Below are positions 44,505 to 51,655 of a DNA stretch of 64,000 nt, piece by piece. The position numbers and the translations under genes were made by a program. Within the stretch, counting starts at the first letter, position 1. Each line of letters starts with the position of its first letter. Below the pieces are notes generated by a model. That model was not told where the DNA came from, ran no database searches, and saw only the letters and a list, made by a program, of their open reading frames with translations. This DNA comes from Collimonas arenae (GTDB lineage: Bacteria; Pseudomonadota; Gammaproteobacteria; Burkholderiales; Burkholderiaceae_D): NCBI RefSeq assembly GCF_000786695.1, contig NZ_CP009962.1:5022001-5086000 (forward strand), written 5' to 3'.

Positions 44505-44841
44505 ACTGATTGAAAATTATCGGCACTTGCGCTAGGAATTGTTGTTATTGCGCCAGCCGGGGAAACAACTCCGGGCAAAAGAAAACCCGATCTGCACATA
44601 GGCATCGGGTTTAAATCCACTCCTGTGGAGGGGTGGAGGAGACACGATTGATTGCCCAACATCAACTCCAGCAATCGATAAACCATCTTAGCAAACGGAA
44701 TTGTGCGTCGCAAGGTAGAAAAATAAGGGATTTTACCAATAATACTGCCTGAATTTCCCCTGCGACAACAAAATCGCGCCTGAACCACATCCGTCCAGAG
44801 CAGTTAGAATATCGCGACACACAAACAGCCCGCGAGATCCT
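44505..44841. other. Gene-free region with two hairpins between rplM promoter and the OsmC gene
   Basis: 337 bases. Two stem-loops stand next to each other: AAACCCGAT (44583-44591) with ATCGGGTTT (44604-44612), and CCACTCC with GGGGTGG (about 44617-44636). Neither is followed by a clean T-run on the plus strand. No reading frame looks like a gene. The OsmC promoter should lie at the right end (a TAGAAT near 44804 is a weak candidate). Confidence 0.45.
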
Positions 44842-46888: not shown

Positions 46889-47659
46889 TCAGATTGGCGC
46901 CTGCTGCAGTTTTTCCGGCACAATATCAGCCAATGCATCGGCACAGCGGACCACTTCGCCGATAACAATAATGCTGGGGCTACCAAGACCGCTCTCCTGC
47001 AGGTCCTGCGGCAGCCGATCGAGACAGGTCAGCAACTGCGCTTGCGACGCCAGCGTTGCCGATCGCACCACTGCGACAGGCATGCTTCCGGCCATGCCGG
47101 CATCCGGCAGATTGCGCTGCAATTGCCGACAGCGAGCAACACCCATATAGATCACCAGAGTCATCCCGGCCGCGACCAGCGCAGGCCAGTTCGGCTGCAC
47201 CGCATCGCTCTTGCCATGGCCAGTGACGAAAATCACACCCTGGCTATAGTCGCGATGGGTTGCTGCAACGCCGATACTGGCGGCAGCCGCCATGCCGCTG
47301 GTAATGCCCGGCACCACATCGACTGCCACGCCGGCATCGCGCAGATAGGCGCGCTCTTCACCACCGCGGCCGAACAGGTAAGGATCGCCACCCTTCAAGC
47401 GCACCACGCATTGTCCGTTTTGCGCCTCCAGTACCATCAGGCGCTGGATGAATTCTTGCGAGGTCGACTGGCAACCGCCGCGCTTGCCAACGTGGATGAT
47501 GCGCGCACCCTCGTGCGCATGCTGCAGGATCTCGGGATTGACCAGATCGTCCACCAGCAGCACGTCGGCGCGGGCAATCGCCTTGACTGCTTTCAGCGTC
47601 AGCAGGTCAGGATCGCCCGGTCCCGCTCCAACCAATATGACTTTGCCTTGTCGCTGCAT
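46889..47659 (-). CDS. cobA: CobA/SUMT, uroporphyrinogen-III C-methyltransferase
   Basis: Makes precorrin-2 by two SAM methylations, on the way to siroheme (cofactor of nitrite and sulfite reductases) or cobalamin. 256 residues from the ATG at 47659, chosen because GGAGGCAGAT precedes it. VILVGAGPGDPDLLTLKA and VRLKGGDPYLFGRGGEE are diagnostic. No CysG-type N-terminal dehydrogenase/ferrochelatase domain. It is the last gene of the nitrate-uptake operon, 13 bases after nrtD, which suggests a role in siroheme supply for nitrite reductase. Confidence 0.96.
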   Translation of the reverse strand: MQRQGKVILVGAGPGDPDLLTLKAVKAIARADVLLVDDLVNPEILQHAHEGARIIHVGKRGGCQSTSQEFIQRLMVLEAQNGQCVVRLKGGDPYLFGRGGEERAYLRDAGVAVDVVPGITSGMAAAASIGVAATHRDYSQGVIFVTGHGKSDAVQPNWPALVAAGMTLVIYMGVARCRQLQRNLPDAGMAGSMPVAVVRSATLASQAQLLTCLDRLPQDLQESGLGSPSIIVIGEVVRCADALADIVPEKLQQAPI

Positions 47660-47672
47660 ATCTGCCTCCACG

Positions 47673-48479
47673 CTAAGCCGCCACCGGATGCGTCTGTTTT
47701 CGATACAGGAATTCCAGCACCGAGGTACGGTATTCTGCATATAGCGGATCCTGCGCCAGCGTCACCCGTTCCCGTGGCCGCGCCAGCCTTACTTGCACAA
47801 TCTCGCCGATAGTGGCTGCTGGACCATTCGTCATCATCACGATGCGGTCCGACAACAGCACTGCTTCGTCGACATCATGGGTCACCATCACAACCGTCGA
47901 TTCGGTCTTGGCGACAATCTTCAACAACTCGTCCTGCAAATGGGCGCGCGTCAAAGCATCCAGTGCACCGAACGGTTCATCCATCAGCAACACCTTTGGC
48001 TCCATTGCCAGCGCCCGCGCAATACCGACCCGTTGCTTCATGCCGCCGGAAATTTCGTGCGGGCGTTTTTTTCCCGCCGCCGTCAAACCCACCATCGCCA
48101 GCGCGGCCTTGGTGCGTTCCTTCAGGGCGTTCCTGTTTTCGGTCGCGCCAAATACGCGTTCGACGCCGAGGTAGATGTTTTCATGGCAGGTCAGCCACGG
48201 CAGCAGCGAATGATTCTGGAACACCACCGCACGCTCAGGCGACGGTCCACCGATTTCACGACCCGCGCAAATCAATACGCCCCCGCTCGGCATCAGTAAA
48301 CCGGCAATGAGATTCAACAAGGTCGACTTGCCGCAACCCGAATGACCGATCAGCGTCACAAACTCGCCCTTGCGCACTGTCAGGTTGATATCGCACAGCG
48401 CATGAAACGGGCCTTTGCGGGTGTTGAATACCATCTCGGCCTGATGGATATCGATGAATCTAGCGTCGCGCTGTTCCAT
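47673..48479 (-). CDS. nrtD: Nitrate ABC transporter ATP-binding protein (NrtD/NasD type)
   Basis: 268 residues. Walker [18 protein letters not shown]-loop [13 protein letters not shown], signature [15 protein letters not shown], Walker [13 protein letters not shown]. It lacks the C-terminal NrtA-like domain that marks cyanobacterial NrtC, hence the NrtD name. Lies 23 bases after nrtB and 13 before cobA. Energises nitrate (or nitrite/cyanate-like anion) import; specificity rests on NrtA. Confidence 0.92.
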
Positions 48480-48502: not shown

Positions 48503-49420
48503 CTAGCTCGCAACCTGTTCGTAAGTAAACGCCTTAGCCAATGCCACCAGCAATTGCTCCAGCAGCAAACCGACCACGCCGATCACCACAATCGCGATGA
48601 TGATGTGTGGCACGTTCAGGTTGTTCCATTCATCCCAGACCCAGAAGCCGATACCGACGCCCCCCGTCAGCATTTCCGCCGCCACGATGACCAGCCATGC
48701 GGTGCCGATCGCCAGCCGTACACCGGTCAGCATGTAAGGCAGGACCGAAGGGAAGAGAATCTTGGTGATGATTTTCCACTCCGACAGGTTCAGCACCCGC
48801 GCTACATTCATGTAGTCCTGCGGCACTCTCTGCACACCGATCGCGGTATTGATCACCATCGGCCAGATCGAGCAGATGAAGATTGACCAGATGGCCGCCG
48901 GGTTGGCCGACTTGAACACTAGCAAACCAATCGGCAGCCAGGCCAGCGGCGACACGGGCTTCAGCAAACTGATAATGGGTCCGAACATGCTCGACAAGAA
49001 TGCGAAGCGGCCGATCATGAAGCCGAGTGGAATCCCGACCAGAGCCGCCAGGCCGAAGCCGACGCCGACACGCTGCAGCGAAGCCAGGATATTCCAGCCG
49101 ATGCCCTGGTCGTTGGGACTGGTGCGGTAGAACGGATCTGAAAATAGTTTGAACGCTTCCTGCAAGGTCAGCAGCGGCGTCGGGAACTGTCTGTTGTTCA
49201 TCGCAATGATCTGCCAGACCAGCACCAGGAACGCCAGTCCGAGCAGCGGCGCAATGATTTGCATCAGCCAGGAAGGTGCGCTGCTGCGCCGCTTGATTGT
49301 TTTCAGCATTGGCCGCGGCGCGGCGGCCGTATCGACCGGTGCTTTCGCTTCATGCCCGGCGCTATCCATGATCGCCGCCTGGCGGTTTGCATTCGCCGTT
49401 GTATCCATGATTGCATTCAT
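48503..49420 (-). CDS. nrtB: Nitrate ABC transporter permease (NrtB/NasE type)
   Basis: 305 residues from the ATG at 49420, picked because GGGAGCG precedes it and it falls after the nrtA stop; the frame is open further upstream, inside nrtA. A polar N-terminus of about 60 residues comes before six predicted membrane helices. The EAA loop reads [23 protein letters not shown]. Inner-membrane channel of the NrtABD importer. Confidence 0.92.
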
Positions 49421-49464: not shown

Positions 49465-50751
49465 TCATGCATGGATCTTGAACGACGCGGCATAGGCTTG
49501 CGGATTCTTGCCATCCCACACCACGCCATCCATCAGCTTCGAGGTACGCAATACATCCTTCGGCACCGGCGTATTCGTCATCGCCGCGGCGTCCTTGTAG
49601 AGAGCGATCTGGCTGACCGACTTTGCCACCGCCAGGTAGTCCGGATCGGTCTTCAGCAAACCCCAGCGCCGGTGCTGCGTCATGAACCACATGCCGTCCG
49701 ACAGATAAGGGAAATTGACCAGGCCGTCGTTGTAGAATTTCATGTAGTTCGGGTCGTCCCAGGTCTTGCCCAGGCCGTTCTGGTAACGCCCCATGATTCG
49801 CTGGTCGATCACATCCTTGCTGGTATTGACATAGGATTTATCGGCAATCGCTTCAGCCATCTTGTTCTTGTTGGCGAGCGAGGCGTCAATCCACCTGCCG
49901 GCTTCCAGCACCGCCGCAATCAGTGCACGGCAGGTATTCGGATTCTTGGCGGCAAACTCGGCGGTGGCGCCTAGTACTTTTTCCGGATGGTCTTTCCAGA
50001 TCTCTTGCGTGGTGATGGCGGTGACGCCGACGCCGTCGACAATCGCCCTGTGGCCCCATGGCTCGCCAACACAGAAACCATCCATGTTACCGACCCGCAT
50101 ATTCGCCACCATCTGCGGCGGCGGCACGGTGATAACTTTGGCGTCCTTGAGCGGATTAACGCCGTTGGCGGCCAGCCAGTAATACAGCCACATGGCGTGC
50201 GTGCCAGTCGGGAAAGTCTGCGCGAAGGTATATTCGCGCTTGTCGCTGGTCATCAGCTTGGCCAGCGAAGCGCCGTCGACCGCCCCCTTGTCAGCCAGTT
50301 TTTTCGACAAAGTGATCGCCTGGCCGTTATTGTTCAGTCCCATCAGGATCGCCATGTCTTTCTTTTGTCCGCCGATGCCCATCTGCACGCCGTAGATCAA
50401 ACCAGACAACACGTGCGCGCCATCCAGTTCGCCGTTGGCCAACTTGTCGCGCACGCCTGCCCAGGAAGCTTCCTTGCTGAGGACGATCTTGATGCCGTAT
50501 TTCTTGTCGAAGCCGAGCAGCGACGCCATCACGACGGAGGCGCAGTCGGTGAGAGGAATGAAACCGATCTTGACTTCGGTTTTTTCCGGTTTGTCCGAGC
50601 CGGCGGCCCAGGCTCCGGTTGCAGTGCTCGATAATCCCAACATGCTGGCTCCTGCCGCGAGTGTCGCGGTCTGTAATAGTTGGCGGCGCTTGCCATCGAC
50701 AGCCAGGCTTGTATCCAGATCATCCTGCGGCAACACATTCTCTACATCCAT
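49465..50751 (-). CDS. nrtA: Nitrate-binding protein NrtA (NasF-like), Tat-exported
   Basis: Periplasmic anion-binding protein, 428 residues from the ATG at 50751 (AAGGGG upstream; an in-frame start at 50796 lies inside the control leader). Twin-arginine signal KRRQLLQTATLAAGASM (Arg22-Arg23), cleavage near WAA (about 50). Family motifs: GFIPLTDCASVVMA, LANGELDGAHVLSGLIYGVQMGIGG. The Tat signal marks it as the transport component rather than the cytoplasmic sensor NasS, which is a homolog without a signal. First gene of the operon, under sigma54 and leader control. Confidence 0.93.
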   Translation of the reverse strand: MDVENVLPQDDLDTSLAVDGKRRQLLQTATLAAGASMLGLSSTATGAWAAGSDKPEKTEVKIGFIPLTDCASVVMASLLGFDKKYGIKIVLSKEASWAGVRDKLANGELDGAHVLSGLIYGVQMGIGGQKKDMAILMGLNNNGQAITLSKKLADKGAVDGASLAKLMTSDKREYTFAQTFPTGTHAMWLYYWLAANGVNPLKDAKVITVPPPQMVANMRVGNMDGFCVGEPWGHRAIVDGVGVTAITTQEIWKDHPEKVLGATAEFAAKNPNTCRALIAAVLEAGRWIDASLANKNKMAEAIADKSYVNTSKDVIDQRIMGRYQNGLGKTWDDPNYMKFYNDGLVNFPYLSDGMWFMTQHRRWGLLKTDPDYLAVAKSVSQIALYKDAAAMTNTPVPKDVLRTSKLMDGVVWDGKNPQAYAASFKIHA

Positions 50752-50777: not shown

Positions 50778-50880
50778 AAAAAAGGCGTCGTTCCACAATG
50801 CACCAGTCATGTGGAAAGACACCTTTGTCTTATGTGGAAAGGACCACCGTTAGCCGATTCCAGCGACGCCATCGTTGGCG
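50778..50880 (-). promoter_or_regulatory. ANTAR-responsive two-hairpin antitermination leader of the nrt operon
   Basis: Reading the minus strand 5' to 3': P1 is CGCC-AACGAU-GGCG (50880-50867). P2 is AAGAC-AAAGGU-GUCUU (50831-50816). Both loops are hexanucleotides with A at position 1 and G at position 4, the published signature of RNAs bound by ANTAR proteins. A terminator follows: AAAGGUGUC (50826-50818) pairs with GACGCCUUU (50789-50781), enclosing a UUCCAC/GUGGAA hairpin, then a T-run (50783-50778). The terminator's 5' arm is the loop and 3' arm of P2, so the two are mutually exclusive. NasT, encoded just upstream, is the natural ligand. Confidence 0.8.
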
Positions 50881-50894
50881 CTTGAATGTTTATA

Positions 50895-50911
50895 TGCAAA
50901 CCACGTGCCAG
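50895..50911 (-). promoter_or_regulatory. Sigma54 (-24/-12) promoter of the nrtA operon
   Basis: Minus strand CTGGCACG-TGGT-TTGCA: TGGCACG at 50904-50910 and TTGCA at 50895-50899, a full match to the TGGCACG-N4-TTGC(A/T) consensus. Transcription would begin near 50885, just before the first leader hairpin. Confidence 0.88.
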
Positions 50912-50950: not shown

Positions 50951-50982
50951 CGCACTTGCTTTGTGCGTCGCACCAAATGTGC
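50951..50982. promoter_or_regulatory. Two NtrC-like dyads upstream of the sigma54 promoter
   Basis: GCAC-N7-GTGC (50952-50966) has exactly the spacing of the E. coli NtrC site. A second dyad GCAC-N5-GTGC (50970-50982) lies beside it. They would sit about 70 to 95 bases before the predicted transcription start, a normal place for an enhancer-bound NtrC. Confidence 0.6.
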
Positions 50983-51034: not shown

Positions 51035-51655
51035 TTAGCCCAGCAAATCGGCGGCGTCGATAATGCGTTGGGCCACCTCGGACAATTTCAGATTCTTGTC
51101 CATTGCCAGCCGGCGCAGCTTTTGATAAGCCTCCTGCTCGCTCAGCTTATGGTGCTCCATCAGCAAGCCTTTGGCCCGCTCCAGCACTTTGCGCTCGGCC
51201 AGTTTCAGCTTGGTGTCGGATAACTCAGCAAGCGATTTCTGCTCTTGCCGGAAGCGCGCCAAAGCGACATCCAGTACCGGCTTGATGCGCGCTGTCTGTA
51301 GACCCGCCACGATGTAGGCGGACACTCCGGCGGCCATGGCGGCATCCATGCTGGAGGTCTTTGCATCCTCGGTAAACAAGACGATGGGACGGCGCGCATC
51401 GCGGGTTGCCACCACCACGTGTTCCAGTACATCGCGGGCGTTGGATTCGGCATCCACGATGATCATGTCAGGTTGCAACTGAGCAATTCTCTCAGGCAGA
51501 TAAAGGTCGGCCGGAAGCGAGGCGACGATGTTGTAGCCGGCTTCCAGCAAACCGATGCGCAAGTCCTTGCCACGCGCGGCCTGGACCGCAAACGCAGGGT
51601 CGTCTTCACCCTCAATGGCGACCGGATTGACAACAACGATACGTAGACTTTGCAT
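51035..51655 (-). CDS. nasT: NasT-like ANTAR antiterminator (response-regulator fold)
   Basis: 206 residues. N-terminal receiver-like domain (about 1-125; LRIVVVN start, PDMIIVDAES with a central Asp) and C-terminal ANTAR RNA-binding domain (about 145-206; ERAKGLLMEHHKLSEQEAYQKLRRLAMDKNLKLSEVAQRII). In Azotobacter and others NasT binds the leader of nitrate assimilation operons and is held by NasS without nitrate. Start at 51655 because MQSLRIVV begins the first strand; the open frame extends upstream to a GTG at 51775 lying in the pyrC hairpin. No nasS is seen in the window. Confidence 0.92.
   Translation of the reverse strand: MQSLRIVVVNPVAIEGEDDPAFAVQAARGKDLRIGLLEAGYNIVASLPADLYLPERIAQLQPDMIIVDAESNARDVLEHVVVATRDARRPIVLFTEDAKTSSMDAAMAAGVSAYIVAGLQTARIKPVLDVALARFRQEQKSLAELSDTKLKLAERKVLERAKGLLMEHHKLSEQEAYQKLRRLAMDKNLKLSEVAQRIIDAADLLG

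What the first reader, a model, noticed from the sequence alone, without database searches (positions are those of the whole stretch)
50778..50880. Legible ANTAR dual-hexaloop antiterminator in front of nrtA
Two short hairpins with hexaloops AACGAU and AAAGGU (both A1/G4) lie in the leader. The second overlaps the 5' arm of a terminator, AAAGGUGUC/GACGCCUUU followed by a T-run. The gene for a NasT-type ANTAR protein is immediately upstream. This gives a testable switch: NasT bound to both loops holds P2 and lets transcription pass. The loop rule (A1, G4) is established for ANTAR targets; the assignment here is from reading the bases.
Basis: partly seen in the sequence, partly recalled or inferred. 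Interest (0 to 1): 0.78.

Follow-up and report, generated by a model that had tools for sequence, protein, structure and literature searches.

The report
Three-hairpin nitrate switch before nrtA
The start of a bacterial nitrate-uptake message carries what looks like a protein-operated RNA switch of a known type, but with three matching docking hairpins where two are usually described, and the same layout recurs in many related bacteria.

Summary
On the minus strand, between a NasT-type ANTAR gene and nrtA, lie hairpins with loops AACGAU and AAAGGU; the second excludes a strong terminator. ANTAR antitermination is the best reading: one ANTAR gene in the genome, hairpins that covary in relatives, a sigma54 element just upstream.

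The two named hairpins are 34 nt apart, outside the 5-12 nt reported for eut. Strict triples occur in 38 of 52 leaders of the family, the window's included, against 0.03% of shuffles, and three hexaloops in 27 of 40 further elements. The genome's second target has the same plan, with one stem mismatch. In other families of the class two are commoner (16 of 29; three in 10).

Verdict: a new variant, a three-hexaloop ANTAR leader, of a known kind. For leaders, the passages I saw describe two; the small RNA EutX is noted with one extra. No NasS was found in 15 genomes of the genus, so the nitrate input is open. NasT binding is inferred, not shown.

The parts
51035..51655 (-). nasT: ANTAR-domain antiterminator, 206 aa
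   Evidence: Pfam ANTAR 75.3 bits (on a 209-aa reading); translation; alignment with EutV
50952..50966 (-). NtrC-like dyad GCAC-N7-GTGC, starting 56 nt before the promoter
   Evidence: A slightly looser pattern is found in 32 of 52 leaders against 0.9% of shuffles; the consensus is recalled
50896..50910 (-). sigma54 -24/-12 element TGGCACGTGGTTTGC; predicted +1 at about 50884 (12 nt after the -12 C, a rule from memory)
   Evidence: Sequence; the 52 leaders counted were chosen for such an element
50866..50881 (-). P1: hexaloop hairpin GCGCC-AACGAU-GGCGU, at about +4 of the predicted RNA
   Evidence: covariation
50842..50855 (-). Pm: the missed middle hexaloop hairpin GGCU-AACGGU-GGUC (two of four pairs G.U); may be extended by UGGAA/UUCCA (50858-50862 with 50835-50839)
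   Evidence: covariation; out-scored by a rival hairpin
50816..50831 (-). P2: antiterminator hexaloop hairpin AAGAC-AAAGGU-GUCUU
   Evidence: A1 and G4 in 52 of 52 leaders, loop letters not imposed
50781..50826 (-). Intrinsic terminator hairpin, exclusive with P2
   Evidence: -22.1 kcal/mol
50778..50783 (-). U-tract of the terminator
   Evidence: Sequence
49465..50751 (-). nrtA: nitrate-binding protein with a twin-arginine-like start (KRRQLLQ)
   Evidence: Pfam NMT1_2 344.9 bits; the name nrtA rests on context and similarity
48503..49420 (-). nrtB: nitrate ABC transporter permease
   Evidence: TIGR01183 251.3 bits, above cut-off
47673..48479 (-). nrtD: nitrate ABC transporter ATPase
   Evidence: TIGR01184 331.5 bits, above cut-off
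46889..47740 (-). cobA-type uroporphyrinogen-III C-methyltransferase (siroheme branch), end of the likely operon
   Evidence: TIGR01469 289.4 bits, above cut-off

Best explanation
A NasT-operated transcription antiterminator with a three-hexaloop target. Under nitrogen limitation NtrC and sigma54 start transcription at about 50884. P1 is made first, at the very 5' end; Pm follows, then P2. Without active NasT the terminator, much stronger than P2, forms and RNA ends before nrtA. Active NasT docks on P1 and Pm as they emerge, is passed on to or co-occupies P2, holds it, and RNA polymerase reads into nrtABD-cobA. The same plan works in front of the second target (an MFS, narK-type by my reading, transporter gene with nirB and a nitrate-reductase-like gene). 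Shown here: the sequences, the exclusivity of P2 and terminator, covariation of all three helices, A1/G4 conservation, the sole ANTAR gene, the sigma54 element, the second target. Inferred: NasT binding, order of docking, NtrC action, the start site, nitrate as the signal.
For: Three A1/G4 hexaloop hairpins (>=4 bp, at most 2 G.U each) in 38 of 52 leaders, the window's included, against 0.03% of shuffles; with at most 1 G.U, 26 of 52 against 0.07%; of 128 such hexaloop hairpins of any loop letters upstream of P2, 88 are A1/G4. With loop letters left free, A1 and G4 stand together in 44 of 49 hairpins at the P1 place and 43 of 49 at the Pm place (52 leaders; 3 without a hairpin at each place), while positions 3, 5 and 6 vary. 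Covariation on 44 leaders: 59 double-changed cells against 18.8 in shuffles and 10-25 when slid; repeated on 66 elements from named genomes, on an alignment fitted to the model. One ANTAR gene in the genome, two clear targets, both in front of nitrate genes. Folding of the RNA from the predicted start through P2 gives all three hairpins. EutV's contacts R142, K143, K147, Y164 and M172 correspond to R, K, R, Y and M in this NasT (alignment, chain numbers taken as shifted by two; residue list from passages of PMC8934654).
Against: No binding or readthrough data. In the window's own copy Pm is the weakest hairpin (2 of 4 pairs G.U, -2.1 kcal/mol for the inner part; it passes only the looser test), and a competing GUGG-UCCUUU-CCAC hairpin scores higher. 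The folds do not show Pm, and the fold that stops just before the terminator's 3' arm keeps P2 but loses both P1 and Pm. 14 of 52 leaders fail the strict triple test. On the fitted set, one measure is weak: 10 pairs with double changes against 8.3 in shuffles, reached by 31 of 500. EutV's N173, R175 and R177 are D, N and K here (NasR has D, N and R). Below the gathering score of Rfam narK (26.9 of 43.2) and P11 (17.7 of 70). NasS, the usual inhibitor of NasT, was not found.
Confidence: 0.8

Rival explanations
1. P1 is a 5'-terminal mRNA-protecting or promoter-clearance hairpin and not a NasT site; the working ANTAR target is the pair Pm plus P2, a normal dual hexaloop.
For: P1's loop A lies at +7 to +10 of the predicted start in 40 of 44 leaders where it was located, so it would cap the RNA; elements of other families more often have two hexaloops (16 of 29).
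Against: A1 and G4 kept in 44 of 49 P1-place hairpins with free loop letters, while positions 3, 5 and 6 vary and the stem is rewritten by double changes; a stability hairpin needs no such loop.
Confidence: 0.2
2. The dual hexaloop: P1 plus P2; the middle hairpin is incidental.
For: In the window the middle hairpin is weak and absent from several folds; P11 leaders have a promoter-near hexaloop and P2 with a small hairpin between; linkers up to 25 nt were accepted in actinobacteria.
Against: Middle hairpin covaries at 5 of 6 pairs, is A1/G4 in 43 of 49 leaders with free letters, and gives the 10-nt spacing; P1 to P2 is 34 nt, and longer eut linkers cut or abolished function.
Confidence: 0.07
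3. The switch is set by NasT amount and NtrC, not by nitrate: without NasS, NasT is always active.
For: No NasS found in the window genome; 13 of 15 genomes of the genus show one NasS/NrtA-family match, nrtA, with a signal-like start in all 15 rows read from 14 genomes; the receiver domain lacks the lysine (YIVAGL against YLVKPL in EutV).
Against: The terminator would serve little purpose with an always-active NasT; nrtA precursor could take the part of NasS; six weaker PF13379 genes of the genome were not examined. Not tested.
Confidence: 0.2
4. The terminated leader is itself a product: a short RNA with hexaloops that soaks up NasT, as proposed for EutX and EutV.
For: P11 is described in Rfam as a small RNA; PMC8934654 notes EutX as a sequestering RNA with an extra single hexaloop beside its dual motif.
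Against: P2 is locked in the terminator of such an RNA; the terminator and T-run sit next to the gene start, as in attenuators. Could be an added effect.
Confidence: 0.1

Closest known systems
ANTAR dual-hexaloop target RNA (EutV/eut, NasR/nasF; PMC3369931, PMC7496416, PMC8934654, passages seen)
   Same: Hexaloops with A1 and G4, short stems, last hairpin exclusive with an intrinsic terminator, close pair with a 10-nt spacer, ANTAR gene in the genome.
   Different: Three hexaloops, evenly spaced at 10 nt in the window, the first at the predicted 5' end of a sigma54 transcript; the passages describe two for leaders.
EutX small RNA (PMC8934654, passage)
   Same: Dual hexaloop motif plus one additional hexaloop with G4, so three hexaloops in one RNA are already noted there.
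   Different: EutX is described as an RNA that sequesters EutV; here the three stand in a row in front of the terminator of a leader.
Rfam RF03032 narK RNA
   Same: Its consensus, as printed, reads as a sigma54-like element plus two A1/G4 hexaloops; the two matches above its cut-off show both, and a terminator.
   Different: The window scores 26.9 against a gathering score of 43.2 and has one more hexaloop.
Rfam RF00625 P11 (recalled: nalA of Pseudomonas)
   Same: sigma54-like element, promoter-near A1/G4 hexaloop, P2 GGAC-AAAGGC-GUCC overlapping a terminator; a middle hairpin.
   Different: Window scores 17.7 against 70. In P11 the middle loop is A1/G4 in 16 of 30 loci read by eye and a tetraloop in 12.
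NasS-NasT of Paracoccus (PMC3795266, passages)
   Same: NasT-type ANTAR regulator beside nitrate assimilation genes.
   Different: No NasS found in this genus; only the nrtA product, with a signal-like start.

Membership tests
ANTAR-target RNA | Stem-loops with six-base loops, A at 1 and G at 4 | tested here: met
ANTAR-target RNA | Last hairpin exclusive with an intrinsic terminator | tested here: met
ANTAR-target RNA | Short linker between neighbouring hexaloops (5-12 nt in eut, PMC3369931) | tested here: met
ANTAR-target RNA | Exactly two hexaloops (the dual form) | tested here: not met
   Three in the window; strict triples in 38 of 52 leaders, the window's included
ANTAR-target RNA | ANTAR protein in the genome | tested here: met
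   One gene at E <= 0.001
ANTAR-target RNA | Bound by the ANTAR protein; readthrough depends on it | not testable with these tools
   Needs the bench
Rfam RF03032 narK RNA | Gathering score 43.2 | tested here: not met
   26.9 bits
Rfam RF00625 P11 | Gathering score 70 | tested here: not met
   17.7 bits
NasT proteins | ANTAR domain with RNA-contact residues | tested here: met
   R, K, R, Y, M at five EutV contact sites, but D, N, K at N173, R175, R177
NasS-NasT system | Cytoplasmic NasS sensor | tested here: not met
   A NasS-like protein of a relative (L032, so named by me: no signal, next to nasT) finds only nrtA in the window genome at E <= 1e-5

The most novel reading that the evidence does not exclude
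NasT leaders are built for a higher-order NasT. The three evenly spaced hexaloops are read together by three NasT dimers: Paracoccus NasT released from NasS ran at about 130 kDa, broadly consistent with a hexamer (PMC3795266, passages). The array would give a cooperative, threshold-like antitermination unlike the one-dimer, two-hairpin EutV switch. In this genus the nrtA product itself, before export, would stand in for the missing NasS, so the switch senses the transporter's own state.
Probability: 0.15. Interest if true: 0.75.

Novelty: new variant of a known kind. Interest (0 to 1): 0.52.

Why it matters
ANTAR targets are searched for and modelled as two-hairpin elements. If a large bacterial family uses three in its leaders, such models miss or misplace one site, and the unsettled question of how many ANTAR dimers act on one RNA becomes testable: remove each hexaloop in turn and measure stoichiometry and readthrough. 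It also suggests that Rfam's narK RNA is a sigma54 promoter plus a NasT target, and points to a genus that seems to run NasT without NasS.

Tried and rejected
Rfam at gathering score gave nothing at the leader. Below it, four matches came up: narK and P11 at this place and strand, and RFPL3-AS1_2 (plus strand) and ClpQY_promoter, both taken as chance. In the narK match 27 window bases stand where the model has 2; the middle hairpin itself was first seen by eye in the relatives printed. An alternative switch by a second UUUCCACA copy in the Pm arm (it repeats the terminator arm) was dropped: L016-L018 lack it by eye. A sigma70-like promoter on this strand was looked for and not found. P11 as a uniform triple was rejected: the middle loop is A1/G4 in only 16 of 30 loci read (L283 could not be read there, L287 has no clear middle hairpin). 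Paper searches aimed at three-hexaloop ANTAR targets and at 'narK RNA' listed none in the held library; the paper I recall as defining narK RNA (10.1093/nar/gkx699) is not held, and the P. aeruginosa nalA papers are recalled, not read. No structure prediction and no search of the 5.8-billion-protein set was run. The six weaker PF13379 genes of the genome (35 to 89 bits) were not examined one by one.

Rows dropped: of 88 stretches downstream of nasT genes, 36 without a sigma54 element plus GAC-N6-GTC hairpin were left out of the leader counts; six of these (L020, L024, L025, L032, L035, L037) have a nasS-like gene next to nasT by eye. Of the 52, eight were left out of alignment A1: six without the layout by eye (L027, L028, L029, L062, L067, L077) and two with long inserts (L065, L066). 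Of the 35 non-own matches, 29 had loci and were counted; counts there and are of A1/G4 hairpins in the matched stretch, layout not checked, and one search has no shuffle control. The 40 elements were picked from the matches as lying away from the leaders already counted; not all such matches were taken.

Full report
What is there. The feature is on the minus strand between a NasT-type ANTAR gene (51035-51655) and nrtA (start codon at 50751). The genes after nrtA are nrtB, nrtD and a cobA-type methyltransferase. The source is a Collimonas-like bacterium: NasT is 98% identical to that of Collimonas humicola. Reading with the RNA: an NtrC-like dyad (50952-50966), a sigma54 element TGGCACG-N4-TTGC that fits the consensus I recall at every position (50896-50910), predicted start at about 50884, P1 with loop AACGAU, a middle hairpin Pm with loop AACGGU, P2 with loop AAAGGU, and a terminator that uses the loop and 3' arm of P2. 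Spacers are 10 nt (P1-Pm) and 10 nt (Pm-P2); P1 to P2 is 34 nt.

More than chance. The stretch folds better than all 200 shuffles (z -3.78). The terminator is -22.1 kcal/mol against -3.7 for P2, so P2 needs help to win. Folding the RNA from the predicted start to the end of P2 gives all three hairpins, with Pm extended by a UGGAA/UUCCA stem; folding through the U-tract gives P1, the extended Pm and the terminator. Against this, the fold that ends just before the terminator's 3' arm keeps P2 but replaces P1 and Pm; the folds, cut at other ends, do not show Pm; and Pm in the window has two G.U pairs.

Relatives. NasT was sought in 145 genomes drawn from the family; 112 match at E <= 0.001, which includes weak ANTAR paralogues. 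I read 88 stretches downstream of nasT genes (30 loci, the window's genome among them, and 58 fetched). Of these, 52 have a sigma54 element followed by a GAC-N6-GTC hairpin. In those 52, the P2 loop is A1 and G4 in every one, though loop letters were not imposed. Strict triples of A1/G4 hexaloop hairpins occur in 38 of 52, against 0.03% of dinucleotide shuffles; 14 fail, of which 6 have Pm only, 5 P1 only and 3 neither; with at most one G.U per hairpin it is 26 of 52 against 0.07%, and the window's own Pm does not pass that. Among hexaloop hairpins upstream of P2 with any loop letters, 88 of 128 are A1/G4. With letters free, the P1 place has a hexaloop hairpin in 49 of 52, A1/G4 in 44; the Pm place 49 of 52, A1/G4 in 43; the window's own Pm is out-scored there by another hairpin.

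Covariation. On 44 of the 52 leaders (8 dropped before alignment, listed under Tried and rejected), 92.8% of cells pair, 59 cells have changes on both sides (shuffles 18.8, slid versions 10-25), and P1, Pm and P2 have double changes at 4 of 5, 5 of 6 and 1 of 4 pairs. A covariance model from that alignment found 66 elements at E <= 0.01, one each in 66 of 80 loci of named genomes. There, on 62 distinct rows, 135 cells are double-changed against 33.1 in shuffles and 8-42 when slid; the number of pairs with a double change is 10 against 8.3, which 31 of 500 shuffles reach; that alignment is fitted to the model, and many species are likely to overlap the first set. Of these 66, 45 have three strict hexaloops, 19 two, 2 one; of their shuffles 0.1% have two and none three.

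Regulon. In the window's genome the model has two strong hits: this leader (62.8 bits) and one at C1:171495-171574 (40.6 bits); the next is 18.4 bits, E 0.67. The second lies in front of an MFS transporter (narK-type by my reading), a nirB-type nitrite reductase, a flavoprotein and a molybdopterin oxidoreductase. It has a sigma54 element, loops AACGAC, AATGAT (its stem with one U.U mismatch, so a strict count gives two) and AACGGC, and a terminator. In 40 further elements that I picked from the family search, 27 have three hexaloops, 1 four, 12 two; the next gene could be named in 37, 25 like that MFS gene and 12 like nrtA. The commonest P1 and Pm stems of the MFS-gene leaders (GATC with GATC, GTCC with GGAC) differ from those of the nrtA leaders (CGCC with GGCG, GGCC with GGTC), while P2 stems are partly shared; so the triple plan is kept in two separate targets.

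Wider. In 369 genomes of the class, 33 match at E <= 0.01, the window's included. In 29 of the 35 non-own matches the count is three hexaloops in 10, two in 16, one in 3; these were found with a three-hairpin model. P11 leaders were read in one unnamed genus, taken as Pseudomonas-like because of P11 (37 of 41 genomes above the cut-off): they have a promoter-near hexaloop and P2; the middle hairpin is A1/G4 in 16 of 30 loci read by eye and a tetraloop in 12. Rfam's narK RNA, by its printed consensus and its two matches above cut-off, looks like a sigma54 promoter plus two ANTAR hexaloops.

Protein. NasT aligns with chains of EutV, Rv1626, NasR and AmiR (entry names partly from PMC8934654 and memory). 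EutV's contacts R142, K143, K147, Y164 and M172 are R, K, R, Y and M here, if chain numbers are shifted by two, which puts every named residue on the right letter; N173, R175 and R177 are D, N and K. The receiver lysine is missing, as expected for a partner-controlled protein. Yet no NasS was found: a NasS-like protein of a relative (L032; so named by me because it lacks a signal and follows nasT) finds one gene, nrtA, in 13 of 15 genomes of the genus; in one more nrtA is found in two pieces, and in one (G102, 1.7 Mb) it is decayed. The 15 N-termini read, from 14 genomes, carry KRRQ and a hydrophobic stretch. The window's genome has six weaker PF13379 genes (35 to 89 bits) that I did not examine; none matched the NasS-like query at E <= 1e-5. 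In G102 nasT has stops, and by eye P2 and the -12 element are eroded while the loop letters of P1 and Pm survive.

Literature seen. PMC3369931: passages. PMC8934654: passages and part 1 of the discussion. PMC8164766, PMC6759348, PMC7496416, PMC3795266, PMC5424462: passages. They describe two hairpins, or do not give the number, for ANTAR leaders; PMC3795266 speaks of a series of regulatory hairpins, data not shown. PMC8934654 notes that the small RNA EutX has an additional single hexaloop besides its dual motif, so three in one RNA is not without precedent. It proposes that a dimer is recruited at the first hairpin and passed to the second, and reports no antitermination when the linker is lengthened by 20 nt. 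PMC3795266 reports released NasT as broadly consistent with a hexamer. No paper on a three-hexaloop leader stood in the listings.

Mechanism. The recruit-and-transfer model extends naturally: P1 and Pm are two docking stations, P2 is the working one. The first loop base of P1 lies at +7 to +10 in 40 of the 44 leaders where it was located, so NasT could load almost as soon as RNA leaves the polymerase. Whether NasT occupies the three in turn or together is open.

Verdict. The finding is real; its mechanism is very likely right; its count of hexaloops is too low, and the corrected count is the interesting part.

Noticed in passing
44577-44644, minus strand: Betaproteobacteria toxic small RNA RF02278, 56.7 bits, above its gathering score.
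   Followed up: no
Rfam RF03032 and RF00625 matches, L245, L246, L233 and L260-L288: Both Rfam families look like sigma54 promoter plus NasT/ANTAR hexaloops plus terminator; the narK model seems to include the untranscribed -24 element.
   Followed up: partly
Genus of the window (15 genomes): NasT without any NasS found: the NasS/NrtA-family match is nrtA with a signal-like start.
   Followed up: partly
L020, L024, L025, L032, L035, L037: In other genera a NrtA-like gene without signal (nasS-like) sits right after nasT, where nrtA sits here; L032 and L035 keep what look like traces of a sigma54-like element and hairpin in between (by eye).
   Followed up: no
L096 (G102, 1.7-Mb genome of the same genus): nasT, nrtA, promoter and P2 are all decayed together, a natural loss of the whole switch.
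   Followed up: partly
50833-50840 and 50810-50817: The stretch UUUCCACA occurs twice, once in the Pm arm and once in the terminator arm, so Pm could pair with the terminator here; not seen in L016-L018.
   Followed up: partly
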